Below the pieces are notes generated by a model, which saw only the letters and a program-made list of their open reading frames with translations, had not been told where the DNA came from and did not search any database. DNA of 64,000 nt from positions 1,860,001 to 1,924,000 of the forward strand of contig NZ_AP018823.1 of assembly GCF_002217795.2 (NCBI RefSeq). The letters run 5' to 3'. Shown here piece after piece: positions 2,602 to 14,546 of the stretch. Origin of the DNA: Aquitalea magnusonii. Its GTDB lineage: Bacteria > Pseudomonadota > Gammaproteobacteria > Burkholderiales > Chromobacteriaceae. Made by a program: the position numbers and the translations under genes. Within the stretch, counting starts at the first letter, position 1. Each line of letters starts with the position of its first letter.

Positions 2602-2700
2602 GGTGTGGTTGGTGTGGTTGGTGTGGTTGGTGTGGTTGGTGTGGTTGGTGTGGTTGGTGTGGTTGGTGTGGTTGGTGTGGTTGGTGTGGTTGGTGTGGTT
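2602..2700 (+). repeat. 11 tandem copies of GGTGTGGTT (9 bp), G-quadruplex-prone
   Basis: Eleven perfect head-to-tail copies of GGTGTGGTT fill 99 bases, followed by a partial GGT. GG pairs are separated alternately by TGT and TT. Every run of two copies therefore contains GGTTGGTGTGGTTGG, the core of the classical thrombin-binding aptamer, which folds as a two-tier antiparallel quadruplex. The repeat is noncoding as far as I can tell (its frames give only periodic peptides). It ends 15 bases before the dif XerD arm and about 160 bases before the prophage regulator start. Confidence 0.97.
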
Positions 2701-2715
2701 GGTATCAAATTGTTT

Positions 2716-2743
2716 ATTTGACATAATATATATTATGCGAACT
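2716..2743 (-). other. dif: Left dif site / attL (XerD arm, centre, XerC arm)
   Basis: By eye this 28-bp block differs from the reverse complement of E. coli dif at four positions, and it is closer still to Neisseria-type dif. Read on the plus strand: XerD arm ATTTGACATAA (2716-2726), 6-bp centre TATATA (2727-2732), XerC arm TTATGCGAACT (2733-2743). The XerD arm should be the original chromosomal one and the XerC arm the element's, because an almost identical half lies at the right end of the prophage. A dif site marks the chromosome terminus region, where FtsK and XerCD resolve dimers. Confidence 0.88.
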
Positions 2744-2860
2744 AGCCGACGTACCCAGACGGGCTTGCAAAATGAATTACGAAAACACCCTCACATTTAA
2801 AATTATCCCCGCCGCCACCATAGGCTGTGCATATAACCATAACGAATGTGAAACACCGTA

Positions 2861-3397
2861 ATGAACACAAAACAATCTAAAGACGGCGCAAAACCGCCCA
2901 AAACCACCAAGAAAACCGTTGCATCCAAGCAACGCGAAGCCGACAAACTGCGCCGCCGTGCCGCTGTTTACTTGTCAGAATGGCAAATCGTGACCTGGGG
3001 AATGTCCGATGAAGTCATTGCGCACACACTGCGCGTCGCGCCGTCCACCGTCAGCCGCTGGCGACGTGGCACTGCGCCAATCCCATGGATGGCCATGGAA
3101 ATCATGCGCCAACAACGCGGCATGTCATTGCCTGGGGCTTTTGAGGAATTCGCGGATTTCACTGTGATGCGTGGCCACTACGGAGCCGTGTTGGTTCCAC
3201 CTGGCGCACACTGGAAAGACGGCATTTCTGCCCGAGAAGTAAGAAACTGGTGGCTGCTCAGACAGATTATTACCCGGTCACTGCATCGTAAAATGCCCCG
3301 TGCCGCGCTTCCTGCTGTCCCTGCCCACCATTTACTGCAACCTGCAGCCAACGAATCGACTAAGCCGATTGCTGACGTGATACCGCTACCTATCTAG
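2861..3397 (+). CDS. HTH DNA-binding protein, probable prophage regulator
   Basis: 178 residues: a Lys-rich N terminus (1-35), then a helix-turn-helix around MSDEVIAHTLRVAPSTVSRWRRG (about 48-70), then a region with WKDGISAREVRNWWLLRQ that resembles small phage DUF3653-type proteins. It is the first gene inside the left attachment site and is transcribed against the structural operon; its stop overlaps the last late gene by 4 bases. Likely repressor or activator of the element. The G-rich repeat and dif lie in its upstream region, so its expression might be sensitive to them. Confidence 0.7.
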   Translation: MNTKQSKDGAKPPKTTKKTVASKQREADKLRRRAAVYLSEWQIVTWGMSDEVIAHTLRVAPSTVSRWRRGTAPIPWMAMEIMRQQRGMSLPGAFEEFADFTVMRGHYGAVLVPPGAHWKDGISAREVRNWWLLRQIITRSLHRKMPRAALPAVPAHHLLQPAANESTKPIADVIPLPI

Positions 3398-3534
3398 TGC
3401 AGCATGTGCGGCAGTACCTGTATTGCCGCTTTGACCACTTGAGCAATGCACAACGCCACAACGGAAAACTTCGCACCACGAACGACACAATCCACCACGA
3501 ATGGCGTGTTGCTCTTATCCATATTTGCTTCCAT
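3394..3534 (-). CDS. Tiny membrane protein, last gene of late operon
   Basis: 46 residues with one hydrophobic segment (GAKFSVVALCIAQVVKAAIQV). AGGGG sits 6 bases before the chosen ATG; an upstream in-frame ATG at 3609 would give 71 residues but lacks a good ribosome-binding site. Family unknown. Its place at the operon end with other one-span proteins suggests a virion membrane or lysis protein. The stop overlaps the convergent regulator. Confidence 0.5.
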   Translation of the reverse strand: MEANMDKSNTPFVVDCVVRGAKFSVVALCIAQVVKAAIQVLPHMLH

Positions 3535-3667
3535 TTTCAACCCCTTGTATTGACACGACAGGTAATCTACCGCATAGTGCCGATCATTAGTTGGATTCAT
3601 ATTTTTCATCTTTTCTATGAGTTTGATTAATACCCGGCTCGCGCTCCCACGCGGGCCATTTTCATTT

Positions 3668-3778
3668 CTACAGTCCGTATTTGTCCCACTTGGACGGCGG
3701 TTGCAGCCGCTGCAAGATCAATCCCCCGACGACAGTGGCCACCACGGCAAGCAGGACGGTCTTCACCGCGCCTTTCAT
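3668..3778 (-). CDS. 36-residue membrane peptide
   Basis: Starts MKGAVKTVLLAVVATVVGG: a two-lysine N terminus followed by one membrane span, then a short basic tail ending in Leu. Its ATG overlaps the TGA of the upstream gene (ATGA), so it should be translationally coupled. Unknown family. A holin, a spanin-like protein or a minor virion membrane protein are all possible. Confidence 0.6.
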   Translation of the reverse strand: MKGAVKTVLLAVVATVVGGLILQRLQPPSKWDKYGL

Positions 3779-3942
3779 GCCACCACCCCTTGCAGACGAT
3801 CAATCCTTCTGTGCGCTCTGTCTGCATCTTTCTGCGCCCGGTTGGTGTCCTGGCGAATCCAACGCAGTTCCACACGCACACCACCCCACGCCACCAGCCC
3901 GGAAACCACGCCAGTCAGCAGAACGGGCAGTAGTTCAGCCAT
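3775..3942 (-). CDS. 55-residue holin-like membrane protein
   Basis: N-terminal hydrophobic span (LLPVLLTGVVSGLVAWGGV), then a highly charged helix (RQDTNRAQKDADRAHRRIDR). One span plus a charged coiled tail is common among small holin or lysis accessory proteins, but no family is recognised. It overlaps its upstream neighbour by 8 bases and its downstream neighbour by 4 bases, so it belongs to the late operon. Confidence 0.6.
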   Translation of the reverse strand: MAELLPVLLTGVVSGLVAWGGVRVELRWIRQDTNRAQKDADRAHRRIDRLQGVVA

Positions 3943-4099
3943 TTGCACGTTCCGGCATGAGAACTGCGAACAGACCCGCCAGAATGGCCGGGACGGCTAC
4001 GGAAGCCGGTTGGCCAGCGGCAAGACCCGCCGCATTGCTGATCACTGCTGCCAGACCTGCCGCGCTAGACGGCTCTTTCAGTCGATTCAGAAAACCCAT
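3935..4099 (-). CDS. 54-residue membrane protein
   Basis: Predicted sequence MGFLNRLKEPSSAAGLAAVI followed by an Ala/Gly-rich hydrophobic stretch (AVAVPAILAGLFAVLMPE-like). One or two weak membrane segments. It begins 8 bases after the preceding gene stop and overlaps the next gene by 8 bases. Family unknown; candidate virion membrane protein. Confidence 0.55.
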   Translation of the reverse strand: MGFLNRLKEPSSAAGLAAVISNAAGLAAGQPASVAVPAILAGLFAVLMPERANG

Positions 4100-4107
4100 G
4101 ATTACCC

Positions 4108-4308
4108 CTACAGTTTGAAGTTGATATTTTGCCAGCCGGCAAGCGCCGGCCCACTTGCAGCGGGTTGCCCCGCACTACTGGAAGCAATGCCCCCAGCACT
4201 ACCACCCTGCCCGGCCGCTGGCGCTGCCGCCGCTGCCTGCTGCTGAGTGCCAAACTTCCACCACACAAACGCCATCGCTGCCACCAGCAGCCATTGCTCG
4301 TTGCTCAC
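4108..4308 (-). CDS. 66-residue membrane protein with Ala/Gly/Ser-rich tail
   Basis: Short N-terminal span (WLLVAAMAFVWWKFG), then a low-complexity tail rich in Ala, Gly, Ser and Gln, ending NINFKL. The ATG overlaps the preceding stop by 4 bases. The same plan (short span, flexible soluble tail) recurs in neighbouring genes and fits proteins anchored in an internal virion membrane. No family recognised. Confidence 0.6.
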   Translation of the reverse strand: MSNEQWLLVAAMAFVWWKFGTQQQAAAAAPAAGQGGSAGGIASSSAGQPAASGPALAGWQNINFKL

Positions 4309-4724
4309 CAGCTACCCCCCGCGCCGCCGTACAGCGCTTTTGTTTTGTTGACCTGGGCATTAGCCGTCTTTGCCGCATCCGCCTTGCTTGGCTTCACATT
4401 GCCGAACGTCGAGTTTTTACCGGCCAGCCAATCGGCGATGGCCTGATCTTCGCTCGGGTGCATCCACTTGTAGATCTGCGTCCCAACAGTCTCGCCCTTG
4501 TCCTGGATGCCGAACCACTTGTCTACACGGTTGGCAATGCCATAGGCGACATTGTTCGAGCTGGTCGGGTTGACGGCCCCGTTGTCCAGTGCCTGACTCA
4601 CGGCATCAATGACGACCGGCACGGTTTCAGCGGTCTTTTTGAGGACGTAGACGGCGACAATGCCACCGGCCAGCGCCAGCCAGCCAATCGGCGGGATGGC
4701 TTTCATGATGTTGTCAGCGGCCAT
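4305..4724 (-). CDS. 139-residue single-span protein, prophage late operon
   Basis: N-terminal span PIGWLALAGGIVAVYVLKK (about 12-30), then a soluble domain with VDKWFGIQDKGETVGTQIYKW and a Lys/Ala-rich C terminus. Overlaps the upstream gene by 11 bases and the downstream one by 4. Unknown family; probably a virion membrane-associated protein. Confidence 0.6.
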   Translation of the reverse strand: MAADNIMKAIPPIGWLALAGGIVAVYVLKKTAETVPVVIDAVSQALDNGAVNPTSSNNVAYGIANRVDKWFGIQDKGETVGTQIYKWMHPSEDQAIADWLAGKNSTFGNVKPSKADAAKTANAQVNKTKALYGGAGGSW

Positions 4725-5115
4725 TGCCTACGTTCCAGTACGGTTCATCATTGATCACTGTATATGCCGGCCCGCTTGGCCCCCCTGCATTGGCAAATAC
4801 GCCGGCTGCACCCGTGTTATCCGAGTTCGCGTAGTCATGCAAAACGCCATCATCGCCAATGTCATCGGCAAACATGTTTTGAATCTGATCCCACGTAGCC
4901 CCCGCTTGAATTGCGAACCGCTTTTTAGCAGTATCAATGCGGTCAGAGTCCTTGGCGTCTCCGCTCTGCAAAATGCCATGCAGCGGCGCAGACAGCCCGT
5001 CCAACAGATCGTTGACCGGCCCGCCATCCTGTTGCAGTCGCTTGGCCACCATAAAGCCTACGAACGCCAGTCCAGCGACCACCAGCAGGGTTTCCATCTG
5101 TTTGCTATTTGCCAT
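4714..5115 (-). CDS. 133-residue single-span protein, prophage late operon
   Basis: N-terminal span ETLLVVAGLAFVGFMVAKR (about 8-26), then a soluble part rich in Asp and Gly. It follows the transglycosylase by 34 bases. Another member of the one-span set; no family recognised. It could be a virion membrane protein or an entry-associated factor. Confidence 0.6.
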   Translation of the reverse strand: MANSKQMETLLVVAGLAFVGFMVAKRLQQDGGPVNDLLDGLSAPLHGILQSGDAKDSDRIDTAKKRFAIQAGATWDQIQNMFADDIGDDGVLHDYANSDNTGAAGVFANAGGPSGPAYTVINDEPYWNVGNGR

Positions 5116-5149
5116 TTTTATCAGCCATCAATTACGCAAAACGCGTAGC

Positions 5150-5674
5150 TTACAGCACGTCAGCGCCGGTTTGGCTGGCTTCTTCATTTGTGTAGCCGTC
5201 CACCACAATCAAGCCGTACTTGCGGGTTTCACCGGGCAGCGCCTTCTTCTGGCCAGCCAGATATTTTGCTACGTTGCCCTCGCCCCAGTTGTAAGCCCAG
5301 ACGGCTTTCTTCCAGTCGCCGAATTTCTTGAACAACTGCGCCAGATAGCCCATGGCCTTGTCGGCCGACTGGGTCGGGTTGGTCGGGTCAACGCCCAACG
5401 CCTTGGCCGTCAGCGGCATGAACTGGAACAGGCCTACTGCACCCGCACCGGACTTTTTCTTGCCGCTGATTACATTGGGGTCAAAGTTGCCGGATTCCTG
5501 CTGTGCCTGGCGCAACGCCAGATCTACCGGAACGCCCCATTTTTGTGCCGCCTTGGCAATCATGGCGTTATAGCCCTTGTCGGTCGGCACGCGACCGCCA
5601 CCGCCAATGATTGGCAAGCCTGCGCCTACGCCGTCCGATGCTGCTTTTTTCACGTCTACGAATTTACCGCTCAT
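5150..5674 (-). CDS. Lytic transglycosylase (SLT-like), virion entry or lysis enzyme
   Basis: 174 residues with an SLT/goose-lysozyme-like fold signature: catalytic Glu60 in QAQQESGNFDP, then GLFQFMPLTAKALGV and WAYNWGEGN. It should cleave the MurNAc-GlcNAc bond of peptidoglycan. No classical signal peptide is visible, so delivery with the virion or via a holin is likely. Membrane-containing tailless phages carry comparable virion-bound muralytic enzymes (for example PRD1 P7). Its start overlaps the stop of the upstream Tfa-like gene (ATGA). Confidence 0.88.
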   Translation of the reverse strand: MSGKFVDVKKAASDGVGAGLPIIGGGGRVPTDKGYNAMIAKAAQKWGVPVDLALRQAQQESGNFDPNVISGKKKSGAGAVGLFQFMPLTAKALGVDPTNPTQSADKAMGYLAQLFKKFGDWKKAVWAYNWGEGNVAKYLAGQKKALPGETRKYGLIVVDGYTNEEASQTGADVL

Positions 5675-5904
5675 TGCTGTTGATCCTGTTCAATACGCCA
5701 CTGGCCGCCCTGCTCTTTTGCAATGCCGGTTTCCCAGTAGTCGGGTTGATAAATTGCGACCTGGCCAGCCTCGACGGCGGGCGGTTGGTCGAAGGTACTG
5801 TCAGCCGGCACGATGAAAGTGCCGGGCTCAAGCGCACATTCGTCAGCAGTGCCGGTGCACAGATAGCGGCCGGTCACCGGGTCATAGTGATAGATGGTTT
5901 TCAT
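5671..5904 (-). CDS. Tail-fibre-assembly-like (Tfa N-terminal type) small protein
   Basis: 77 residues beginning MKTIYHYDPVTGRYLCTG and containing LEPGTFIVPADSTFDQPP, QVAIYQPDYWE and a C-terminal QGGQWRI. This is the pattern of the N-terminal part of phage tail-fibre assembly proteins, which normally sit directly after a fibre gene. Here it directly follows the collar-domain gene. The ATG at 5904 is preferred over a TTG one codon earlier. Role inferred: folding helper or component of the receptor-binding spike. Confidence 0.65.
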   Translation of the reverse strand: MKTIYHYDPVTGRYLCTGTADECALEPGTFIVPADSTFDQPPAVEAGQVAIYQPDYWETGIAKEQGGQWRIEQDQQQ

Positions 5905-5915
5905 CAACGGCCCCT

Positions 5916-6443
5916 TTAGTATTTGATGAGCACTAGCGCCGCGACGTTGCGCGGGCGTGTCTCTGCCGCCGTCCTGGCCACTCGTGACGCATCAATACCC
6001 ACGCTTACTGAGTAGACAGACGCGCCCCCCGATAGCGCAGTTGAAGACATAGAACCACTAAATGCCCCGGTGGCCCCTGCATTCGACGTACTGGAATAGA
6101 CCCCAAAATTGCCAGTGATATTTTGCAATGCGTCAGTCTGTGCAGTACCTAGTGCTCTCCCCGCGTCAACCCCCCTGCCATCATCCAGCCCCCTCAGGAA
6201 CTCTCCGCGATAGTCCGGCAGGTTGAATGTCGTTGTGCCATCGCCTGCGCCGTACTGCGTCCCCAGTGCCGCAAACAGCACGGCATATGTTGAACGGCTC
6301 ACCGCCGCCCCATTACATTTCAGCCAGCCCACCGGGGCCGATGCCCCGGCAAAGTGGACAATTTCACCTGCCATGAAAATCGTTCCCTCCACGTTGACAA
6401 GACCAGCCGTGCCAGTCTTGCGCTTTATTCTTGCCGACCGCAT
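5916..6443 (-). CDS. Phage tail-collar-domain protein, candidate receptor-binding spike
   Basis: 175 residues. The central stretch has GEIVHFAGASAPVGWLKCNG, then TYAVLFAALGTQYGAGDG and FNLPDYRGEFLRG, the hallmark of the phage tail collar domain (Pfam PF07484) in tail fibres. The C-terminal 70 residues are Ser/Thr/Gly-rich and end in VAALVLIKY, typical of fibre tips. The ATG overlaps the upstream stop as TGATG; translation from Met25 (MAGEIVHF) is possible. In this tailless element it probably forms a vertex spike. Confidence 0.85.
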   Translation of the reverse strand: MRSARIKRKTGTAGLVNVEGTIFMAGEIVHFAGASAPVGWLKCNGAAVSRSTYAVLFAALGTQYGAGDGTTTFNLPDYRGEFLRGLDDGRGVDAGRALGTAQTDALQNITGNFGVYSSTSNAGATGAFSGSMSSTALSGGASVYSVSVGIDASRVARTAAETRPRNVAALVLIKY

Positions 6444-7006
6444 CACGCAATCAGTTCCATGGCTTTCAGCACGCCGCCGGCCGCATCGCTAATGGCCACC
6501 CATGCCGCCCCCGGTGCAGTCTCTTCATTCCACACTTCACCAGCGGCAAGCACGATGACCGCTGTGGCATATGTCACACCCGGCCCGCCAATGGCGATGT
6601 TGGTTGCCCCGCTATTCAGTACGCGGAAGCCGTAGCGGTCAGAGCGCTGTGCCATCAGCGGTGTTTCCACCGTCCCGACGTTCACAATGGCGCGATTCAG
6701 CACGCTGGATGCTGTTTGGATGGTGGCATTGACATTGCCGGTCATGCGATTCGTGCCGCCGCTGCCGTCGGAAATGCCGATCTTGACCTTTTGCTGCGTC
6801 GCGCTTGTCAGTTCGACACGATCAAAGCCATCACCTGGCGACGCATAGAATCCGGCTTCCATGTCTTCGGCAGTCATCAGTACCTTGCCGTTGATCATGA
6901 AACGCACCGTTACCGGCGCGTAGCTTTCGAATATCTGGAAGTACGCGCCCACTTCGGCAATGGCCAGCGTCTGGCCAGCGTTGAGAATTTGGCTTGTCGT
7001 CTGCAT
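6443..7006 (-). CDS. Beta-rich structural protein, possibly spike base or penton
   Basis: 187 residues, no membrane span, many short beta-like stretches (YAPVTVRFMINGKVLMTAED, RYGFRVLNSGATNIAIGG, AAGEVWNEETAPGAAWVAIS). Located directly upstream of the collar-domain gene and coupled to it (TGATG), so a vertex or spike-base role is reasonable. No family recognised. This is inference from position and composition only. Confidence 0.6.
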   Translation of the reverse strand: MQTTSQILNAGQTLAIAEVGAYFQIFESYAPVTVRFMINGKVLMTAEDMEAGFYASPGDGFDRVELTSATQQKVKIGISDGSGGTNRMTGNVNATIQTASSVLNRAIVNVGTVETPLMAQRSDRYGFRVLNSGATNIAIGGPGVTYATAVIVLAAGEVWNEETAPGAAWVAISDAAGGVLKAMELIA

Positions 7007-7007
7007 G

Positions 7008-7448
7008 TCAGCCCTTTTTCATTGCTGCCAGAGCAGCCAGCCCCACCACGGTAAAACCGGCGACGGCCAAAATTTGCTTAGTCGGTTGCGCATCTTTCGA
7101 TAACTCCGTTTCTCGCGCCGTCTGGTACATCTGGCCCACGCTGGACAGCGTTTCCTTGACTGCACCACGACCGGCATCCACTTCGGCATAAGCCTTGTCC
7201 AGCAGGTATTTCCCGGCATTCACGACCTCGGAAAAATCCTTGCTGGCCAAGTCCCGGCCACTCTTGGCCAGATCAATGGCCCCGGCTACTGCGCCGCCAT
7301 CCAGTACGTTGATAGTGTTTCCGCTGGAATCCGTGACGCCGACACCGTTTTGCATCGACAAGCGATTGTCTTTGCTGGTACTGGTGTAACTGTTGTTCGT
7401 CGTGTTCTGCGTGCTGCTGGAACTACTGGACGAGCTTTTACCGCCCAT
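7008..7448 (-). CDS. 146-residue protein: Ser/Thr-rich N terminus, C-terminal membrane span
   Basis: The N terminus (2-35) is dominated by Ser, Thr and Asn, the middle is helical (ALDLAKSGRDLASKDFSEVV-like), and the C terminus is one span ending in lysines (ILAVAGFTVVGLAALAAMKKG). The chosen ATG overlaps the upstream gene end by 11 bases. The tail-anchored plan suits a protein linking an internal membrane to the capsid. Family unknown. Confidence 0.6.
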   Translation of the reverse strand: MGGKSSSSSSSSTQNTTNNSYTSTSKDNRLSMQNGVGVTDSSGNTINVLDGGAVAGAIDLAKSGRDLASKDFSEVVNAGKYLLDKAYAEVDAGRGAVKETLSSVGQMYQTARETELSKDAQPTKQILAVAGFTVVGLAALAAMKKG

Positions 7449-7818
7449 GCCACACCTCTTTTCTGTAAACCACTTCGGCCACCCCGTAACCATGCCGCGC
7501 CAACTTGCGGGCAATGCCTGGGCGGGCCGAGTGAATGCGTACGAAATCAGCCCGGCAATTGCGCTCAATGTGCGGCACGATCACATCCAGCAGGCTGACG
7601 CCCGGCAAACTGCCGCCCGCCGCCACAATGACGCATTCGCTGGACTCCCACCGCAGCAGGAAGGCCGCAACGTCTGCGCCATCGTGTTCGACGGCAAACA
7701 GCTTGCAGCCCGGCAGCAGCTGCCGGACATCATCAACAGTCGGGTCATGCCGCACTGCCTTTTCCAGCATGGGTAGCAAGTGCGGGGATTCATCCCCGTT
7801 AGTCAGCCTGATGATCAT
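7438..7818 (-). CDS. GNAT-like small protein, late operon
   Basis: 126 residues. The layout (GCKLFAVEHDGADVAAFLLR, ECVIVAAGGSLPG, then RPGIARKLARHGYGVAEVVYRKEV) resembles small GNAT acetyltransferase-like proteins of phages, with a beta-strand core and a C-terminal 'GY..AEVVYRK' strand. A canonical acetyl-CoA-binding Q/RxxGxG/A motif is not clear. It overlaps the upstream stop by 4 bases. Possible acetylation or minor structural role; uncertain. Confidence 0.5.
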   Translation of the reverse strand: MIIRLTNGDESPHLLPMLEKAVRHDPTVDDVRQLLPGCKLFAVEHDGADVAAFLLRWESSECVIVAAGGSLPGVSLLDVIVPHIERNCRADFVRIHSARPGIARKLARHGYGVAEVVYRKEVWHGR

Positions 7819-8063
7819 TTTGCAAACTTCTTCCAGATCAACAGTCCGACAAAGGCCACGCCGGCATAAATCAGCAGATTGGCCGGGCTGGACTGCGCCA
7901 TGTTTCCGTAGTTGACCGTCCAGTTGCTGCCATCCATGACGCCTTTTTGGGCGCTACTGTTGTCGCTGCTGGATTTGTTGGAGGCCGACGACGGGCCGGC
8001 CCCTGGTGCCTGCATGGCCTTGCCGGCTGCGCCAATTGCCTGCCCTGCTACCATTCCCCACAT
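7815..8063 (-). CDS. 82-residue tail-anchored membrane protein
   Basis: An Ala/Gly/Ser-rich N-terminal half, a SSNKSSSDNSS-like linker, and one C-terminal span (ANLLIYAGVAFVGLLIWKKFAK) with a basic end. It begins 3 bases after the preceding gene stop. It resembles the two neighbours of the same plan; probable virion membrane protein near the capsid gene. Confidence 0.6.
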   Translation of the reverse strand: MWGMVAGQAIGAAGKAMQAPGAGPSSASNKSSSDNSSAQKGVMDGSNWTVNYGNMAQSSPANLLIYAGVAFVGLLIWKKFAK

Positions 8064-8065
8064 AA

Positions 8066-8374
8066 TCAGTCTTTCAGCAGGTAAACGAGCAGGACAGCAC
8101 CGCCAGCCATCAGCAGCAGCGGCATCATCTTGGCCAGACCGCCCGGTTTCGTGACATCGCCCGCCGTGTAGGTTTCGCCGTCCTGGCCTTGCAGCGCGAG
8201 TTGTCGCTGTGCGATTTCATGCGGGTAGTTGTATTCAGCATCAATTGCAGACTTCGCGGCATAGCCGACCGTCTGTTTGAGAACATCACCCCAGCCATCC
8301 CACATGGAGCCGCCGCTATCACCGCTACCGCCCATCAAGCCGTCAGTCACGCCCATGAAGCTATCCGTATCCAT
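8066..8374 (-). CDS. 102-residue tail-anchored membrane protein next to capsid gene
   Basis: Acidic Gly/Ser-rich N terminus (MDTDSFMGVTDGLMGGSGDS), a helical centre (AKSAIDAEYNYPHEIAQRQ), and one C-terminal span (MMPLLLMAGGAVLLVYLLKD). It follows the capsid gene by 9 bases. In PM2 the major capsid protein is likewise encoded beside small membrane proteins. Role inferred, family unknown. Confidence 0.6.
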   Translation of the reverse strand: MDTDSFMGVTDGLMGGSGDSGGSMWDGWGDVLKQTVGYAAKSAIDAEYNYPHEIAQRQLALQGQDGETYTAGDVTKPGGLAKMMPLLLMAGGAVLLVYLLKD

Positions 8375-8383
8375 TTGGCCCCC

Positions 8384-9214
8384 TTACAGGTTGCCGATGG
8401 CGTCAATGGCTTCTACATAGACGTACATCTGGCCAGCGGCAGACAGGTTCAGCAGCAATTGCAGGTTGCGCACGCTGTTGCCGCGAGTGTCCAGCATGTT
8501 GGACTGATTGCCGTCCAGCACCCAATCAATGGTGTGCATGGCAGCTTGCGGCACACGACGGTATTCCTGCTGGCGGAAGCGGTTGAGCTTGTCGCTGGTT
8601 TCATGAATGACAAGGCCATTCATTTTCACGGTGGAATCCGTGACGATGTTCGCGCCACCCTGGCCGATGATGTGGATACGCTTGAACAGCGTACCGGTGT
8701 CACCCTTCGGCAGGCTGTCGATATTGAACAGGCCGGAAGTGGCTGCGGAAACCGGATACTGCAGCAGCTTGTGAACGATGAATTCAACGCCACGGTCAGC
8801 GCTGCCGGCTTGCGGGTCATCCAGTTCCGCCCAGGCATCCAGCGTCGGGGCAGTTGCACCGGCAATCTTGATTTCCAGCGTGAAGGAACTGATACGGCTG
8901 GTATCCAGCGCACCCAGCATTTCACCGTTGATGGTGCGCGCCCGGATCTCGGAAAAGTCGATTGTCAGGAAACCCGGATCATCGAAAATGCCCTTGAACT
9001 TGTTGATGGTGTCCAAGTCCGAGCCGGAAGCTTGGATGATGGTTTTGCCCTGGATTTTTACCTTGATATCCACGATGTTGGATTTCAGGAAAGTAGTGCC
9101 ACCCAGCGCCATGATGATGCGCTTGTAAGTCGGCCCGGTTTGCAGGCTGACAGTGGCCACGCCGTTAGCGGTCACATTGCTGAACGGGTTGCACTTCTGA
9201 ACGTATTTGGTCAT
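8384..9214 (-). CDS. Major capsid protein, PM2 P2-like (double jelly roll)
   Basis: 276 residues, close to PM2 P2 (269). Matching layout: N-terminal NPFSNVTANGVATVSLQTGP then YKRIIMALGG and IVDIKVKIQGKTI, and a C-terminal half with GLVIHET, HTIDWVLDGNQSNMLDTRG and QMYVYVEAI. From memory this aligns with the corresponding PM2 P2 segments (SIPNVAAGNS..., TIDFMLEGDVYQSVLLD..., IIVEYMGVW). It should form pseudo-hexameric trimers over an inner membrane. AAGGGG precedes the ATG by 6 bases. Homology is by eye; fold prediction would settle it. Confidence 0.82.
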   Translation of the reverse strand: MTKYVQKCNPFSNVTANGVATVSLQTGPTYKRIIMALGGTTFLKSNIVDIKVKIQGKTIIQASGSDLDTINKFKGIFDDPGFLTIDFSEIRARTINGEMLGALDTSRISSFTLEIKIAGATAPTLDAWAELDDPQAGSADRGVEFIVHKLLQYPVSAATSGLFNIDSLPKGDTGTLFKRIHIIGQGGANIVTDSTVKMNGLVIHETSDKLNRFRQQEYRRVPQAAMHTIDWVLDGNQSNMLDTRGNSVRNLQLLLNLSAAGQMYVYVEAIDAIGNL

Positions 9215-9229
9215 GCCAGCCCCTTACCG

Positions 9230-9334
9230 TTACTGGCCAATGACGATTTTGCGGACGGGCTGAACGCGCCAAACCAGCGCCATAATCAGCGCGACCGGAA
9301 CGGCCATGGCGGTAATCTGTTTCACACTCGGCAT
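9230..9334 (-). CDS. 34-residue membrane peptide, first gene of late operon
   Basis: MPSVKQITAMAVPVALIMAL followed by VWRVQPVRKIVIGQ: one membrane span with a basic tail. AGGGG lies 8 bases before the ATG. It sits between the late-operon control region and the capsid gene, 15 bases upstream of the latter. Very small integral proteins are a feature of PM2- and PRD1-type virions. Confidence 0.6.
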   Translation of the reverse strand: MPSVKQITAMAVPVALIMALVWRVQPVRKIVIGQ

Positions 9335-9417
9335 ACTCTTTTCCCCTATGGGTGGTTGAACAATCAAATTGAGCGCCCAGCGTATCCAGCCCCCGTAACG
9401 GCCTCAATCCCCCCATT

Positions 9418-9434
9418 CCCGTAACGGTTACGGG
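9418..9434. promoter_or_regulatory. 17-bp palindrome CCCGTAACGGTTACGGG, candidate operator
   Basis: Perfect palindrome around a central G, lying between the early-operon terminator and the first late gene (84 bases before its ATG). A half site (CCCCGTAACGG) lies just beside it at about 9391-9401. The identical palindrome recurs at 11664-11680, and a variant lies at 13838-13853. The position suggests an operator for late transcription. Confidence 0.65.
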
Positions 9435-9444
9435 AAATAGGTCG

Positions 9445-9470
9445 AAAAAAAACCGGCGCGAGGCCGGTTT
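9445..9470 (-). terminator. Rho-independent terminator after the early operon
   Basis: On the minus strand an 8-bp stem AAACCGGC/GCCGGTTT with a 5-base loop is followed by eight T residues. It lies 62 bases beyond the ATPase stop, so it separates the replication/packaging operon from the late structural operon. Confidence 0.85.
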
Positions 9471-9505
9471 CTGTTGCGGTTATGACACGTATTTCCTGAA
9501 TTTTT

Positions 9506-9525
9506 CCGATTAGCGTACTTATCGG
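9506..9525. repeat. Interrupted inverted repeat CCGAT-N10-ATCGG
   Basis: CCGATTAGCGTACTTATCGG, continuing CAATG, just downstream of the ATPase stop. A related block (CCGATAAGCGTC...ATCGGCAAC on the minus strand) lies at 13982-14003 before the right-end regulator. It could be a regulatory or replication site. Confidence 0.5.
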
Positions 9526-9531
9526 CAATGC

Positions 9532-10137
9532 CTAGCCGGTCGAAATTTCACCTTTTCCCATGTCCCGCATGATCCAACCGTACTCACGCAAGGCCACTAC
9601 CTTTTCCAGCGGGATGTCCAAAAACTGTGCCAATACCTGGCGGTCAGTCTGATAGTTAAGTCGGTGTGTTCTAACATGCGTGGCATTGCCCAGAAAATGC
9701 TTGTCGATGCTGGCCGGGCGCTGGCTGGTGCCGTACACGGTAAGGCCACGGTGCCGGCCCTGTGTACTGATCTGCCGCCACGGCCCCGGAGCCCATGAAG
9801 CGGAAGTCACGTCAGACAGTTCCTCTGCAATGAAGGTCAGATTGCCAGCAGCAAAAACCAGCTTGCATACCGCCTCAAACTTGGATTTCAGCAGCTTTTC
9901 ATCCATGGTCTTTGGACGGTATGCCAGGCGCAGCCGCTTGCCGGAACGCAGTCCCTTGAGTAGATCATTCAGGCTGGCCGTGGGCGTGGCAAAGTCGCCG
10001 TACTCTTCGCGGGCATCCCAGATAATCAGCCGGTGCGGCTTGGCTTTTTTAATGCAGCCCTTGATGTAATGGCTTTTGCCGCAGCCGGATGCACCCATGA
10101 CGGCCTCAATGTGTGCCTTGTTGTCACTGCCGGCCAT
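9532..10137 (-). CDS. Genome-packaging ATPase (PM2 P9 / PRD1 P9 / A32-like)
   Basis: 201 residues. Walker A GASGCGKS at 15-22, Walker B NLTFIAEE at 99-106, then the lineage-typical GRHRGLTVYGTSQRP (about 126-141) with a sensor-like Gln/Arg. Size and motif order fit the FtsK/HerA-related packaging NTPases of membrane-containing, double-jelly-roll viruses, which push dsDNA into preformed capsids. ATG overlaps the preceding stop (TGATG). It is the last gene of the early operon. Its pairing with a P2-like capsid gene is the strongest hallmark of the element. Confidence 0.88.
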   Translation of the reverse strand: MAGSDNKAHIEAVMGASGCGKSHYIKGCIKKAKPHRLIIWDAREEYGDFATPTASLNDLLKGLRSGKRLRLAYRPKTMDEKLLKSKFEAVCKLVFAAGNLTFIAEELSDVTSASWAPGPWRQISTQGRHRGLTVYGTSQRPASIDKHFLGNATHVRTHRLNYQTDRQVLAQFLDIPLEKVVALREYGWIMRDMGKGEISTG

Positions 10138-10643
10138 CAGGGCAGGTCTTTCCAGCCCGGCAGGTTGGCGGCATCGTCAGCGGGCTTTGCCGGTGCCATT
10201 TCTGGCACATTCGCCGGAGGCGGTGCCGGGCGCTGGCTGGCTTCGGCCTCGCGGGCCGCAATGTCGGCCTTGATGCCGGCATAGACGCCGAAACCGAATG
10301 TGGAGCAAGTCACCAACGCCCCCAGCTCTGCAGCGTACTGCGTCATCCAGCCGCCAGCGGCTACGCCGTACTTGTCCAGCACCGCGCCGACGCTGGCCGC
10401 CACTTCCTGGCATTTCTCAGGCGGAGCGGTACGCTCCAACGACGGGAAATAAGCCTTTCCCATGGCCACAGCCATTTCCAGACCCATGGCCACGCACTTG
10501 GCATTTCCCATTTCAGCCGGCTCCGGCTGGCCCGGAATGAATTCCGCACCAGCGGCGGGCTCATGCGCCGCCACGATGGCATCCAGTTCCGGGCTGGCCA
10601 GTTCTTCGGATACGTTCGCTGCCTGTTCGTCTTTTCCTGCCAT
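10137..10643 (-). CDS. 168-residue putative membrane protein, early operon
   Basis: Acidic Ala/Glu/Pro-rich N terminus, a central region with one hydrophobic helix (ELGALVTCSTFGFGVYAGI), and a Pro/Ala-rich C terminus ending GWKDLP. ATG at 10643 overlaps the upstream TGA; AAGGGGAA precedes it. It neighbours the packaging ATPase, so it may be a membrane docking part for packaging. Family unknown. Confidence 0.55.
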   Translation of the reverse strand: MAGKDEQAANVSEELASPELDAIVAAHEPAAGAEFIPGQPEPAEMGNAKCVAMGLEMAVAMGKAYFPSLERTAPPEKCQEVAASVGAVLDKYGVAAGGWMTQYAAELGALVTCSTFGFGVYAGIKADIAAREAEASQRPAPPPANVPEMAPAKPADDAANLPGWKDLP

Positions 10644-10816
10644 CACTTCTTCCCCTTATGCTTTGCACGGCGGGCCGCAGCCACACCACTACGGCGACCC
10701 GGCGCAGGCCGGGAGTTAACCGGCTGGATACCAGCCAAATCCCAAGCCGGCGACACTACGCCGGCACTAGACATCAGATGCCACATGTTGACTTTGCTCA
10801 GATCGCGCAGCTTCAT
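10643..10816 (-). CDS. 57-residue basic protein
   Basis: Starts MKLRDLSKVNMWHLMSSAGV; the C-terminal 20 residues are very basic (RRSGVAAARRAKHKGKK), suggesting nucleic-acid binding. It overlaps the zinc-ribbon gene by 4 bases and the next gene by one base. Unknown family; possible DNA-condensing or Rep accessory protein. Confidence 0.5.
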   Translation of the reverse strand: MKLRDLSKVNMWHLMSSAGVVSPAWDLAGIQPVNSRPAPGRRSGVAAARRAKHKGKK

Positions 10817-11076
10817 GCCACCCCCGTCAGGTTTTCCCAGAAGCCGGACTTGGCCGGTTCCGGCTTCTGTTCGTCGGCCTTCGGTACGGCTTGCACCATG
10901 GCGCGACGAATCCGGGCCAGCAGCCCGTCTACCTGTTCCGGCTTGCGGGTGAACATCTGCGCCTTGCAGCCCTTGCGGCAAAACATCAGCGGTTTTCCGT
11001 TCTTGTCTTCATTGACTTCGGCTTCCATGCCGCAGCACGGACAATCCATGTGACCGATCAAATCGCCTTTAGCCAT
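10813..11076 (-). CDS. Small zinc-ribbon protein
   Basis: 87 residues with CPCCG (about 12-16) and FCRKGC (about 32-37), forming a probable four-Cys zinc site in the first half, and a Lys/Glu-rich tail containing GFWENLTGVA. Sits directly after the small coiled protein, overlapping it by 8 bases, in the Rep operon. Likely DNA-binding accessory factor; function unknown. Confidence 0.6.
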   Translation of the reverse strand: MAKGDLIGHMDCPCCGMEAEVNEDKNGKPLMFCRKGCKAQMFTRKPEQVDGLLARIRRAMVQAVPKADEQKPEPAKSGFWENLTGVA

Positions 11077-13181
11077 GACTGCGCCCTTGCGATGCTGTTT
11101 TCAAGCCCTGCAGTTCCGCGCGCAGCTGGTGAATTTCCTCCCGCAAGGCGGTTACTGCCTGCATCGTGGCTGCGGCAAATGCCCCGGCCCGCTGCTGCGC
11201 GTTCATCATGTTGGCGGTGGCCAGTGCCTGGGCTGCTTGCTGCAGCTGTTTCAATTTTTCGTCCATCACGGTTTCCTAACCCGGCAATGCCGGCAAAGCG
11301 CCAGCCGCGCAGTGTCTCGCGGCTTCGATATAGCCCCCAGCTAATCCCCTTTTGCTGGCGGGCTTCCTCCTCAGCAACACGGATGGCTTCGGCTTCATCA
11401 GGCCGAAGCGCACGCGGCTGCATTTGTTCGTATTCGTCCAGCGGCAGCATGGGCGTGCCGCTGTTCAGTGTTCTTTCCAGCCATTCGGCAGGAATTTCCG
11501 CTTGGTAAAGTCGGCGGTTTTCCGTATCCGTACAGTTATTGACAGTGCTCCAAGGCTGCGCGGCTTCGCCGCTACGCTGCAAAACCCACTGATGCACACG
11601 GCTGGTTACCATCTGGCCGGTGGAAAATTCGACAACGCCAAGAACACGACCCGGCATGATTTCCCCGTAACGGTTACGGGCATCCTCGTCCACGTCGGCA
11701 CGATGAACAGACAGCGGCAATTCCTGGCGAGGAACGAATGGGCCACCCAGCAGGCGGACAAAGGTATTCCAGTGGCCACCGTCAGCAGCTTCCACCGCTT
11801 CATCCAGCAACGACTGCGGCCCAGCCGGCAGGCCACGCACCTCGCGCCACAGCACGTAGGCAAGTTGCTCTTGTTTGGCGTCGTCACCGGTCAGCTGCGC
11901 CCGGCGCAGTTCACGCCAGATGGTTACCGGTGGCCCGCCGATCTGCTGGAACTGACGAATGCCCCAAGTCGATGCCCAGGCATCCACACGGGCAGCGCCT
12001 TCCTGTCCAGACATCGGCCCTTCGGCCTCTAGGTCGTCGCCAGAATCAACGCCATCAGCGCGCAGACCGTCGATATTCTTGGAAATGTATTTGGCGATGT
12101 AGCCAACAGCAGAGCCTTGGCTCCAGTCGATGGCCTTTGCCTCAAAGCGGTTTTCTTGCGCGCCTTTTTCGTGGCCATCCTCAGCCAGCGCGTACTTGCG
12201 CATGATCTCGCGCACCTTATCGACAGCGCCCGGCTCCATGAAAAACAGCATGTGCCAGTGAACGGTGCCATCGTGGTGCGGCTCCGCAACGCGGAAACCA
12301 TAGATTTTCAGACCATTGCGGGACAGTGCCGAACGAATACGCGCCCAGACTTTGCACAGGTACTGCTGCGCGTCCCTCGCGTATTTGCGCGCCCACTTTT
12401 CATTTTCGTGACCGGTTTGCCCATGGCGGGCATGGAATTTTGACGGAGTGGTCAGCGTGTAGAACTCGCCGGCATGACCCATGCCAATGGCGATCAATTC
12501 AAAGCCTGCAATGCGGGTCATCAGTTCTGCACGACGGATTGCAGGATTGCTGTTTGAAACCGCTGCCAACTCTTCCAGCGTGTATACCTGGCCCATCTCG
12601 TTGACGGCCTGCATGGAAGCCAGCAGATTGCGGTTTCGTTCTTTCTGGCGCTTGCGGGCCGCCATCGTGTCAGCCGAGCAATACAACCCGGCATAACGAT
12701 GCACCCGGCCCAGATCGACATTGATCTGCTCGACGGCCCGCCGCTGACGCTGGCGAAGGCGACGACGCCACCACCGTGGGTCACATGCACGCGCCCAGAT
12801 GCCAGCAGCCTGCTGCGCATCCGGTGCGTCAAATCCCTTTTCTTGGCAGTAGTCCAGCAGTGGCAGCAGGTGGAAAACATCGGAATCGACGTTTTCCATA
12901 ATCTGGCGGAGCGCCCAGCACTCAGAGGCGAACGATTCCGCATCACGGCACAGGGTTTCATCATCTGCCCGCAGATCAACCCCGGTCGGGATTGATTCAA
13001 GCGTCCGGGTAACCCACAGGTCAGCATCCTGCACGGTTCCCTTGTCGGCCCGCTTGCGATATTCGCGTGCGATGGCCTTTTCTGTCAGCGCCGGCAATTC
13101 AGCACGATGCAGGTAATCCCGCACCCAGCTGGCCACCGGTAGCACATCAGAGCGCTTGGCAAATGACTGCACAGCCATCAT
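11058..13181 (-). CDS. Rolling-circle replication initiator, GPA superfamily (PM2 P12-like)
   Basis: 707 residues. HUH metal-binding motif in VHWHMLFF (about 307-314) and the paired-Tyr motif YIAKYISKN (about 362-370), as in phiX174 gpA and P2 A. It nicks one strand at the origin and covalently holds the 5' end through Tyr. PM2 P12 belongs to the same superfamily. The last about 70 residues overlap a 65-residue gene in another frame and look low-complexity, so the conserved protein may end near residue 640. Starts ATGATG overlapping the upstream stop. Confidence 0.88.
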   Translation of the reverse strand: MMAVQSFAKRSDVLPVASWVRDYLHRAELPALTEKAIAREYRKRADKGTVQDADLWVTRTLESIPTGVDLRADDETLCRDAESFASECWALRQIMENVDSDVFHLLPLLDYCQEKGFDAPDAQQAAGIWARACDPRWWRRRLRQRQRRAVEQINVDLGRVHRYAGLYCSADTMAARKRQKERNRNLLASMQAVNEMGQVYTLEELAAVSNSNPAIRRAELMTRIAGFELIAIGMGHAGEFYTLTTPSKFHARHGQTGHENEKWARKYARDAQQYLCKVWARIRSALSRNGLKIYGFRVAEPHHDGTVHWHMLFFMEPGAVDKVREIMRKYALAEDGHEKGAQENRFEAKAIDWSQGSAVGYIAKYISKNIDGLRADGVDSGDDLEAEGPMSGQEGAARVDAWASTWGIRQFQQIGGPPVTIWRELRRAQLTGDDAKQEQLAYVLWREVRGLPAGPQSLLDEAVEAADGGHWNTFVRLLGGPFVPRQELPLSVHRADVDEDARNRYGEIMPGRVLGVVEFSTGQMVTSRVHQWVLQRSGEAAQPWSTVNNCTDTENRRLYQAEIPAEWLERTLNSGTPMLPLDEYEQMQPRALRPDEAEAIRVAEEEARQQKGISWGLYRSRETLRGWRFAGIAGLGNRDGRKIETAAASSPGTGHRQHDERAAAGRGICRSHDAGSNRLAGGNSPAARGTAGLENSIARAQSWLKAI
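11069..11266 (-). CDS. 65-residue coiled-coil protein overlapping the rep 3' end
   Basis: Helical, heptad-like sequence (MDEKLKQLQQAAQALATANM ... REEIHQLRAELQGLK). ATG at 11266 has AGGAA 8 bases upstream. It lies entirely within the 3' end of the rep reading frame but in another frame. The coding signal looks better in this frame than in the rep tail, so I believe it is real. Confidence 0.55.
   Translation of the reverse strand: MDEKLKQLQQAAQALATANMMNAQQRAGAFAAATMQAVTALREEIHQLRAELQGLKTASQGRSHG
11664..11680. promoter_or_regulatory. Second perfect copy of the 17-bp palindrome, inside rep
   Basis: CCCGTAACGGTTACGGG, identical to the copy at 9418-9434, here within coding sequence of the initiator gene. 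GPA-type initiators often nick inside their own gene, so a role in the replication origin is as plausible as an operator role. Confidence 0.6.
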
Positions 13182-13549
13182 GCAGCTTTCGCGGCCTTCT
13201 GTTTTGCCACCACTGCCGCCCCATTGCGCAGCTTGGCGGAGGCAATGTTATGTCCAAAGAGCAAGCCCTCGAACTGGTGCCACAGATCGCCGCAGGCATA
13301 GATTTTCAGCGGTTCCACCTGCAGGCGCTCTGCCGCCATGGTCAGGTTGATCTGCTGTTCAATTTCCATGATGGTGCGCAGCCCGTCCTGAATCCGCGCT
13401 ATCGCATCCAGCTGCCCAGGGGTCAGCGTGCGGGCTTGCACCTGCTCGACAGGCTGCAAGTAGTCGCGGCTTGCCGCTTGCGGTGTGCCGGCTGGCGGCA
13501 GGGCTTTGGCAAGAATTTGGCTGATAGCCGACATTGCTGGATGGTTCAT
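13178..13549 (-). CDS. 123-residue protein upstream of rep
   Basis: Helical, Ala/Gln-rich, with a run LTPGQLDAIARIQDGLRTIM and a basic C terminus (KLRNGAAVVAKQKAAKAA). No membrane span. ATG overlaps the upstream stop by 4 bases and its stop overlaps the rep start, so it is coupled to Rep. Unknown family; possible replication accessory or coiled-coil DNA-binding protein. Confidence 0.6.
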   Translation of the reverse strand: MNHPAMSAISQILAKALPPAGTPQAASRDYLQPVEQVQARTLTPGQLDAIARIQDGLRTIMEIEQQINLTMAAERLQVEPLKIYACGDLWHQFEGLLFGHNIASAKLRNGAAVVAKQKAAKAA

Positions 13550-13827
13550 TTAATCCATCCAGCAATTACATTTTTACGCATAGCGAATTTATATCCGCGC
13601 TCCATATCAGTCCAAACGTACTTACCGTCAGATACTTTTGCGTCTGACCATTTCCGCACATTGCTGGCAATGTCCCACCCAAACATTTCACCGGCCATTC
13701 CAAAAGCCAACCAGTAATGTTTGTTTTCACTGAAATCTTTGTAATCTTTGTTAATACTTTTGAAGGCTGCTTTTAGAGCTTTCAAATTATGATGTTTGGA
13801 TAAATCTTGTGATTTATTGCGGCACAT
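13546..13827 (-). CDS. First early gene, 93-residue unknown protein
   Basis: Aromatic and Lys-rich (MCRNKSQDLSKHHNLKALKA ... WDIASNVRKWSDAKV ... WTDMERGYKFAMRKN), markedly more AT-rich than its neighbours. GGGGGAA precedes the ATG and is part of the palindrome-like block at 13838-13853, so binding there could block translation or transcription. No family recognised. Confidence 0.6.
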   Translation of the reverse strand: MCRNKSQDLSKHHNLKALKAAFKSINKDYKDFSENKHYWLAFGMAGEMFGWDIASNVRKWSDAKVSDGKYVWTDMERGYKFAMRKNVIAGWIK

Positions 13828-13837
13828 GACGCATTCC

Positions 13838-13853
13838 CCCGTAACGGTAACGG
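13838..13853. promoter_or_regulatory. Variant of the 17-bp motif over the first early ribosome-binding site
   Basis: CCCGTAACGGTAACGG: the left half matches the palindromes at 9418 and 11664; the right half is a direct instead of inverted TAACGG. It begins 11 bases before the early ATG, a classic place for a repressor site. Confidence 0.5.
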
Positions 13854-13985
13854 ATTAGAAATTTAGGGAACGCGGCCCACTTCATGCTGTCGGAATTTTT
13901 ATGGTGAATTCGTAGGGTGAAGCAGTGCCGCTGGGGCCAATGATATCTAATGCTCCCCTAGTGTTTCTGCTGCGTCTGACCGTTG

Positions 13986-14003
13986 CCGATCGACGCTTAT
14001 CGG
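13986..14003. repeat. Interrupted inverted repeat CCGAT-N8-ATCGG
   Basis: Between the early operon and the divergent right-end regulator. Read on the minus strand it starts CCGATAAGCGTC and continues ATCGGCAAC, similar to the block at 9506-9525. Candidate regulator-binding site for the divergent promoters. Confidence 0.5.
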
Positions 14004-14027
14004 CCTATATATGTAGGAGGGAAACTT

Positions 14028-14396
14028 GTGGGAAATTTTAAAATGATTACATCTATCGAATGGATTTCCGTACTGAAATCAAAGGTTTCCGTTCAGTCTG
14101 ATTACGCAATTGCCAAATTATTGGGCGTTTCCTCCGCAACTTTATCCAGCTACAGAACGCGGAAAACATTTCTTGACAAAATAGTGTGTAATCGCATCGC
14201 TTTTTTGATTGAAATTGACCCGAAATACCTTTACGTCTCGACCCATTACGAACGGGCACAAAGCCCCGAAGAAATGCAGGTGTGGATGTCGCTTTGGGAG
14301 GCCATCGAAGGCCCGCAACTTGAGGAAAACATTAGGGAAAATCTTGATTCGAAATGGCTGATGCCAGCAGTTCGGATGATGCGGTGCATGGCATAA
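14028..14396 (+). CDS. Small HTH regulator (DUF3693-like), GTG start
   Basis: 122 residues. HTH in DYAIAKLLGVSSATLSSYRT (about 22-42), then a helical domain with YVSTHYERAQSPEE and WMSLWEAIEG, reminiscent of DUF3693 proteins in Vibrio phages. A perfect AGGAGG lies 7 bases before the GTG at 14028, a much better signal than at the first ATG (14043). It is the rightmost gene of the prophage, divergent from the early operon, and is likely a lysogeny switch protein. Confidence 0.7.
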   Translation: MGNFKMITSIEWISVLKSKVSVQSDYAIAKLLGVSSATLSSYRTRKTFLDKIVCNRIAFLIEIDPKYLYVSTHYERAQSPEEMQVWMSLWEAIEGPQLEENIRENLDSKWLMPAVRMMRCMA

Positions 14397-14411
14397 AAAG
14401 CGTGGTTTTTA

Positions 14412-14439
14412 TGCCGTTAAAATATATATTATGCGAACT
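14412..14439 (-). other. Right dif half-site / attR with degenerate XerD arm
   Basis: Shares the centre and XerC arm of the left site without mismatch (20-bp direct repeat 14421-14440), but the XerD side is TGCCGTTAAAA, poorly matching the consensus ATTTAACATAA. This is expected if the element supplied a non-canonical XerD arm, as CTX-type Xer-dependent phages do, and the chromosome supplied the XerC arm on this side. Confidence 0.82.
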
Positions 14440-14546
14440 ATAGGAAATGCCCAGAATGCTTTGTATATAACGATATGTGGCTTCTCAGTTATCGTTCGCA
14501 TCAGTACTATGTACTACCCCATCCACCGCATTGAAAGACAAGAATC

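What the first reader, a model, noticed from the sequence alone, without database searches (positions are those of the whole stretch)
2716..14440. Prophage flanked by dif sites: Xer-dependent integration of a membrane-phage relative
A canonical dif at 2716-2743 and a half-site at 14412-14439 share a perfect 20-bp direct repeat comprising the centre and XerC arm. Only the left copy has a good XerD arm; the element-derived right XerD arm is degenerate, exactly as for CTX-type integrative elements that exploit XerC. The element itself has no recombinase. Xer-hijacking is best known for filamentous phages; its use by a corticovirus-like element would be notable.
Basis: partly seen in the sequence, partly recalled or inferred. 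Interest (0 to 1): 0.9.

Follow-up and report, generated by a model that had tools for sequence, protein, structure and literature searches.

The report
Membrane-phage relative parked at dif
A small virus related to the membrane-containing phage PM2 has inserted itself at the bacterium's own chromosome-untangling site (dif), apparently using the cell's XerC/XerD enzymes, and it and most of its relatives there sit so that their genes read toward the restored site.

Summary
Confirmed: 2716-2743 is the chromosome's single full dif; 14412-14439 is a half-site sharing a 20-bp repeat (centre plus XerC arm) with a degenerate XerD arm. Between them lies an 11.7-kb PM2-like (Vinavirales) prophage (P2-type capsid, P9-type ATPase, P12-type Rep) with no recombinase found. 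Four congeners have an empty site. Host XerC and XerD are present; dif lies at the GC-skew switch. Xer integration is very likely. Two corrections: the site is TLCphi/GGI-like, not CTX-like; and Xer use by PM2-like phages was already proposed in print, so the element is a new member of a known kind. New here: many PM2-like phages carry a one-armed attP whose good arm is XerC-type in some and XerD-type in others (at least four switches forced on the capsid tree), yet always at the downstream end of the late operon (17 of 17 clear sites). The prophage so reads toward the restored dif, and FtsK-orienting motifs point the same way (34:5). Zot-bearing prophages near dif agree (11 of 11, then 14 of 15). 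Limits: three phages with two arms and a different or longer centre fall outside, and one of them reads away from dif. No experiment was done.

The parts
2716..2743 (+). Chromosomal dif restored by integration (attL): XerD arm 2716-2726, centre 2727-2732, XerC arm 2733-2743
   Evidence: only full copy in the genome; a 23-base core is present once in 8 of 9 congeners searched
14412..14439 (+). Half-site (attR): degenerate XerD arm 14412-14422, centre 14423-14428, intact XerC arm 14429-14439
2744..14411 (.). PM2-like prophage (about 11.7 kb with its sites)
2861..3397 (+). Weak helix-turn-helix protein, antisense to the late genes, at the position of PM2 gp a
   Evidence: PF13384 E 0.001, below cut-off
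5150..5674 (-). SLT-type lytic transglycosylase
   Evidence: PF01464 E 2e-22
5916..6446 (-). Protein with phage tail collar domain, possibly a spike/receptor-binding part
   Evidence: PF07484 E 4e-26; role inferred
8384..9214 (-). Major capsid protein, PM2 P2 type
   Evidence: P2_N E 5e-40, P2_C E 9e-37; profile of 13 relatives hits PM2 P2 (2vvf) and 9t9v
9532..10137 (-). Packaging ATPase, PM2 P9 type
   Evidence: 30% over 176 aligned positions, E 4e-17 to PM2 P9
11058..13181 (-). Rolling-circle replication initiator (Phage_GPA), PM2 P12 type
   Evidence: 38% to P12, E 1e-85
13983..14396 (+). Helix-turn-helix regulator, at the position of PM2 gp c, beside the degenerate arm
   Evidence: (phrog_4441 E 3e-16)
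4205..4212 (-). KOPS-type motif GGGNAGGG pointing to the restored dif
   Evidence: converted to window coordinates by hand
3319..3326 (-). KOPS-type motif GGGNAGGG pointing to the restored dif
   Evidence: converted to window coordinates by hand

Best explanation
The element is a temperate PM2-like phage that integrates into the host dif by means of host XerC and XerD. Its attP is a one-armed dif: centre and XerC arm intact, XerD arm degenerate. Recombination at the centre puts the host XerD arm next to the phage XerC arm, so an intact dif is restored at the left end and dimer resolution can go on. The crippled site left at the right end should resist FtsK-driven excision. Shown by sequence: the sites, the prophage, the empty sites in relatives, host XerC and XerD, the skew switch at dif. 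Inferred: the enzymes' roles; by analogy with TLCphi and the gonococcal island, XerD would make the first exchange and XerC the second, without FtsK. Wider reading: in PM2-like phages with a one-armed attP the good arm lies at the downstream end of the late operon, whether XerC- or XerD-type, so the prophage's transcription and FtsK-orienting motifs run toward the restored dif.
For: Single full dif and a half-site. Empty site in G001, G002, G003, G005. PM2-like elements at dif in other genomes. XerD (TIGR02225) and XerC (TIGR02224) over cut-off in this genome. GC skew of sampled stretches changes sign between 1.69 and 1.87 Mb, dif at 1.863 Mb. No recombinase found in the element. Integrase-bearing PM2-like loci G560 and G1003 (two) show no dif pair. 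Polarity: 12 of 12 prophages of the automatic pair scan, plus L050, PM2, Cr39582, GXT1010 and NO16; five weaker sites agree; KOPS 34:5; Zot prophages near dif 11 of 11, then 14 of 15, read toward dif.
Against: No experiment. The neighbouring tyrosine recombinase at 802-1995 could in principle act, though it lies outside and is present beside an empty site in relatives. Two-armed sites with a different or longer centre occur in G989, PG21 and PQ189321, and the G989 late operon reads away from its 6-nt-centre dif. G172-C14 has a PM2-like capsid gene with neither dif pair nor integrase match on its contig. One Zot prophage (G061) reads away. The side of the good arm may be inherited inertia. KOPS bias may partly be ribosome-binding sites (10 of 34 have an ATG within 18 nt) and is absent in G1077 and 3:3 in G861. 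In another phage, mutants lacking either arm did not integrate (PMC7062461).
Confidence: 0.9

Rival explanations
1. The tyrosine recombinase encoded beside dif (802-1995) or another site-specific recombinase inserted the element.
For: A PF00589 gene lies about 0.7 kb from the left site; tailless Vibrio prophages at dif regularly carry integrase genes (PMC11630473 passage).
Against: It is outside the element. Its region aligns in G001 and G002, which have the empty site, and nothing of it lies between left flank and dif in G003 and G005, whose sites are also intact. It is far below XerC/XerD cut-offs. The 13 dif-flanked elements gave no hit with a home-made recombinase profile from two proteins that recovered 3 of 4 controls.
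Confidence: 0.05
2. The element entered by homologous recombination or with transferred chromosomal DNA, and the half-site is coincidental or a decayed duplication.
For: The prophage has not been shown to be mobile here.
Against: An exact 20-bp repeat at both ends, one copy being the only full dif; thirteen PM2-like prophages with full plus half-site, one of them (G1077) less sure; circular phages carry a single one-armed site.
Confidence: 0.03
3. CTXphi-like integration: a folded single-stranded attP with XerC catalysis only.
For: A rolling-circle Rep implies a single-stranded intermediate (inference); the XerC arm and centre are the matching part.
Against: CTX attP is two inverted sites about 90 nt apart (passages); no second site near the half-site was listed by the scan, and the whole centre matches dif, as in TLCphi. 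The exchange order was not tested.
Confidence: 0.1
4. The constant side of the good arm is only inherited from one ancestral phage and has no functional meaning.
For: attP lies between the same two antisense regulator genes in PM2, NO16 and the window; a switch between arm types needs few substitutions (by eye, 3 between the window's two arms).
Against: Arm type changed 5 times on the tree of 17 clear rows (at least 4 forced) while the side stayed; Zot phages of another family show the same polarity; KOPS exceed a Markov expectation on that strand.
Confidence: 0.35

Closest known systems
PM2 and PM2-like prophages (Corticoviridae/Vinavirales; Krupovic and Bamford 2007, PMC1950889, passages)
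   Same: P2, P9 and P12 homologues, gene order, opened between the two antisense regulator genes
   Different: Betaproteobacterial host with its own dif; XerC-type arm where PM2 has a XerD-type arm
Vibrio phage NO16 (PMC9966536, passages) and Jorvik (PMC10589892, passages)
   Same: Temperate membrane phages proposed to integrate by host XerCD; NO16 has the same one-armed type (XerC arm good)
   Different: No empty-site series, arm-type comparison or polarity analysis in the passages read; Jorvik attP did not score as dif in my scan
PhiCjT23-like Flavobacterium prophages (PMC9719478, passages)
   Same: Small membrane phages flanked by dif-like sites, XerC/XerD integration inferred
   Different: Single-stranded DNA genome, Bacteroidetes host
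TLCphi and the gonococcal genomic island (dif-GGI), from reviews PMC4246890 and PMC5357621 (passages)
   Same: Degenerate XerD arm with intact XerC arm and centre
   Different: A filamentous satellite phage and a 57-kb island, not a membrane phage
Enterogokushovirus EC6098 (PMC7062461, passages)
   Same: Small icosahedral phage at dif; no lysogens in xerC or xerD knockouts; variable centre and XerD arm downstream
   Different: Microvirus, unrelated capsid; its mutants lacking one arm did not integrate

Membership tests
Vinavirales / PM2-like phages | PM2 P2-type double jelly-roll capsid protein | tested here: met
   (P2_N, P2_C far over cut-off)
Vinavirales / PM2-like phages | P9-type packaging ATPase | tested here: met
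Vinavirales / PM2-like phages | Membrane-containing tailless virion | not testable with these tools
   needs induction and microscopy
Corticoviridae sensu stricto | Close capsid relationship to PM2 | tested here: inconclusive
   21% capsid identity to PM2; groups with L050, L066, G009, G013 on a branch that is not starred (88/84)
IMEX (elements exploiting Xer) | dif-like attP, host dif as attB, no own recombinase | tested here: met
IMEX (elements exploiting Xer) | Dependence on xerC and xerD | not testable with these tools
   genes present, function untested
CTXphi class | Two inverted attP copies folding as single-stranded DNA | tested here: not met
   scan lists, besides the two sites, only one weak + strand match in the element (7801, 6 and 2 mismatches) and none inverted there; definition
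VGJphi class | Centre differs from dif on the XerD side | tested here: not met
   centre TATATA identical at both sites
TLCphi class | XerC arm and centre like dif, XerD arm degenerate | tested here: met
TLCphi class | XerD-first, FtsK-independent exchange | not testable with these tools
   inference by analogy only

The most novel reading that the evidence does not exclude
Xer-exploiting phages with a one-armed attP obey a polarity rule. The phage carries a single functional Xer arm, which may flip between XerC and XerD type by a few substitutions, but is kept at the downstream end of the late operon. The prophage therefore lands on either side of dif and always reads toward it, with its FtsK-orienting motifs polarised, keeping chromosome dimer resolution intact. 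A XerD-armed attP with degenerate XerC arm (as in PM2) would be a fourth attP class beside CTX, VGJ and TLC.
Probability: 0.6. Interest if true: 0.72.

Novelty: new member of a known kind. Interest (0 to 1): 0.52.

Why it matters
The element adds a clean betaproteobacterial case, with empty sites and no integrase found in the element, to a question that recent Vibrio work left open (whether dif-located tailless prophages use host or own recombinases; PMC11630473 passage). If the polarity rule holds, it explains how unrelated small phages can share a polarity-sensitive spot of the chromosome without disturbing its segregation, and it gives a testable code: arm type predicts the side of dif on which a phage lands.

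Tried and rejected
A terminator hairpin as the cause of the degenerate arm: clear by eye in L066 and L050, but over 16 sites folding energy was not consistently unusual against control stretches; rejected. Searching viral contigs with the ATPase and with the G755 capsid protein gave no relative. A second alignment search of the order added no genome: 9 of 399, 9 of 399. A generic dif pattern over 10 genomes was too loose for genome-wide use, though it pointed to some pairs. CTX-type filing was rejected on attP structure. Jorvik (fetched without its last 62 bases), D526 and PQ189348 showed no clear site by my scans. Literature searches for an orientation or arm-type rule showed none in the listings or the passages read; most subscription papers are not held.
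Full report
WHAT IS THERE. The left site 2716-2743 reads ATTTGACATAA-TATATA-TTATGCGAACT and the right site 14412-14439 reads TGCCGTTAAAA-TATATA-TTATGCGAACT. A 20-mer is shared exactly; about 0.0016 such repeats would be expected within 15 kb in this window. The full site occurs once in the 4.85-Mb chromosome at up to 3 mismatches. A 23-base core is found in 8 of 9 other genomes of the genus, once each; the ninth is 61% complete. GC skew of sampled stretches is positive up to 1.69 Mb and mostly negative beyond 1.86 Mb; dif is at 1.8627 Mb.

EMPTY SITE. In G001 the left flank, an intact dif and the right flank follow each other; G002, G003 and G005 also have both flanks around an intact dif with no element. 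In G003 and G005 the left flank ends about 130 bases before dif, without the segment that holds the recombinase gene 802-1995, so that gene is not needed for dif. G004, G006 and G007 carry Zot-bearing, filamentous-type prophages at dif, and G009 carries a PM2-like prophage whose main blastn segments are 69-74% identical. In G009 the right flank lies inverted and the left flank was not found.

THE ELEMENT. The capsid protein matches Pfam P2_N and P2_C (E 5e-40, 9e-37), and a profile of 13 relatives matches the solved PM2 P2 and one further double jelly-roll capsid chain. The ATPase is 30% identical to PM2 P9 (E 4e-17) and the Rep 38% to PM2 P12 (E 1e-85). Gene order follows PM2: regulator, attP, regulator, Rep, ATPase, capsid, late genes. 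Pfam scans of 19 different element proteins (10 and 10, one in both) and PF00589 over the genome show no recombinase inside. Host XerD and XerC are over the NCBIfam cut-offs, and the 802-1995 protein is far below them.

RELATIVES. Capsid searches covered 399 genomes of the order, 369 of the class and 398 of the phylum, draws that overlap in part, the species genome collection and viral contigs. They gave 27 loci including the window. Thirteen have a full dif plus a half-site flanking the capsid gene: 12 by the automatic pair scan, which tries both strands and does not use capsid direction, and G1077 by hand. Eight have a degenerate XerD arm (window, G009, G013, L066, G135, G861, G1077, L107) and five a degenerate XerC arm (G140, G172-C1, G210, G755, L105). 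The pair is not always exact in the shared part: up to 3 mismatches in G009, where the chosen half-site is the one at the end of the blastn match. G1077 is the least sure: its XerD arm differs at 3 of 11 bases and its XerC arm at 2. The other loci: one contig with a 127-bp terminal repeat, taken as circular, has a single one-armed site (L050). Three have one site only (G067 and G764 a half-site, L106 a full one). One is a capsid remnant beside dif (G325). G989 has two arms at both ends, with an 8-nt centre at one. Three have an integrase and no dif pair (G560, G1003 twice). G172-C14 has neither. Four stretches showed no pair (G884, G902, G798, L108), three of them contigs under 10 kb. A home-made recombinase profile from only two proteins found 3 of 4 controls and nothing in the 13 elements.

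PHAGE RECORDS. Searches listed 40 and 23 records with capsid matches; I fetched 13 of these and Jorvik, by choice, not all. PM2, Cr39582 and GXT1010, which are kin, have a XerD-armed site and NO16 a XerC-armed site. PQ189338 and PQ189336 have weaker XerC-armed sites. PG21 and PQ189321 have two arms around an 8- and a 7-nt centre. PQ189313, PQ189389 and PQ189369 carry an annotated integrase and no clear site. D526, Jorvik and PQ189348 showed none.

ONE ARM, ONE SIDE. In 17 of 17 clear one-armed sites (12 prophages, L050, PM2, Cr39582, GXT1010, NO16) the good arm lies at the downstream end of the late operon and the degenerate arm toward Rep. The weaker sites G1077, G067, G764, PQ189338 and PQ189336 agree. 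This does not depend on naming the arm, because reading the site on the other strand flips arm type and orientation together. Arm type itself is read from the arm's letters. On the capsid tree it needs 5 changes over the 17 clear rows, at least 4 forced by well-supported branches (7 changes with four weaker rows), not significantly fewer than shuffled labels (mean 5.9-6.0). L050 (XerD type) and L066 (XerC type) are sisters at 99/99. Some degenerate XerD arms (G861, G1077, NO16) keep much of their outer bases and differ mainly next to the centre.

CONSEQUENCE. The restored dif is downstream, so late genes read toward dif, in step with replication. GGGNAGGG (active or likely KOPS in E. coli and Vibrio, PMC2533119 passages; assumed to act in these hosts) occurs 34 times on the capsid-sense strand and 5 times on the other in the 13 prophages. 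Third-order Markov simulation gives 11.8 +/- 3.2 and 3.8 +/- 1.9, and none of 100 reached 34. It is the commonest of the seven G6A permutations. Ten of the 34 have an ATG within 18 nt and may be ribosome-binding sites; G861 is 3:3 and G1077 has none. PM2, Cr39582 and NO16 have none on either strand.

ZOT PROPHAGES. In 61 relatives, 15 genomes gave 18 Zot matches. Eleven lie within 7.3 kb of a dif that I had fetched, and 11 of 11 read toward it; G004 and G043 have one on each side. A matching half-site was clear for seven of them. Of the other seven matches, six went into the second set and one (G023 C17) is on a contig without the dif. Second set: 43 matches, 37 from 26 genomes new and 6; one G127 fragment of a counted frame was dropped. 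dif was found in 26 of 32 genomes; five further one-mismatch sites were left out. Fifteen matches lie within 12 kb of a dif, 28 do not; 14 of 15 read toward it (two-sided binomial p 0.001). G061 reads away. G179 (broken, 11.7 kb off) and G194 (short) are weak rows. G989 also breaks the rule among capsid loci: its late operon reads away from its 6-nt-centre dif.

MECHANISM. The window's attP is of the TLCphi/GGI type by its arms (passages). XerD-first, FtsK-independent exchange is inference. The mirror type, with a degenerate XerC arm, is not among the three classes described in those passages. A caution from experiment: enterogokushovirus mutants lacking either arm failed to integrate (PMC7062461), so a degenerate arm may still need to be occupied in the synapse.

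LITERATURE SEEN. Passages only: PMC9966536, PMC9719478, PMC11630473, PMC1950889, PMC10589892, PMC5357621, PMC4246890, PMC7062461, PMC3091885, PMC4076744, PMC2533119; PMC9765430 had no passage for my terms. The 2007 paper already noted that the elements open between genes XV and XVI and mentioned CTXphi's use of XerC/D as an example of phages without their own recombinase.

Noticed in passing
window 802-1995 (-): Tyrosine recombinase gene 0.7 kb from dif; at least part of its region aligns in the fetched dif stretches of G001, G002, G004, G006 and G007, but not in those of G003 and G005; far below XerC/XerD model cut-offs.
   Followed up: partly
window 2602-2703: Perfect tandem array of 11.3 copies of GGTGTGGTT ending 12 bases left of dif.
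   Followed up: no
window 10813-11076 (-): Small protein in the prophage with a weak match to the restriction alleviation protein Lar (E 2e-4, below cut-off).
   Followed up: no
window 5916-6446 (-): Tail collar domain protein in a phage type that has no tail.
   Followed up: no
L033 (G004), L045 (G043), G098 C21, G210 C1: Two small-phage prophages face each other across one dif; in G210 one is PM2-like and the other Zot-bearing.
   Followed up: partly
L094 (G989) 4868 and 14884; L130 (PG21) 9824; L136 (PQ189321) 12277: Two-armed att sites with 8- or 7-nt centres; the PG21 and G989 sites are identical. They resemble VGJ/CTX logic and fall outside the polarity rule.
   Followed up: partly
L037/L038 (G009): Right-flank genes lie inverted relative to dif, suggesting a terminus inversion with a breakpoint next to dif.
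   Followed up: no
L079 (G325) 9987-10223: Short broken capsid-gene fragment directly beside an intact dif: a decayed PM2-like remnant.
   Followed up: no
window 29170 and 30658: Exact direct repeat of over 30 bases, 1.5 kb apart, outside the finding.
   Followed up: no
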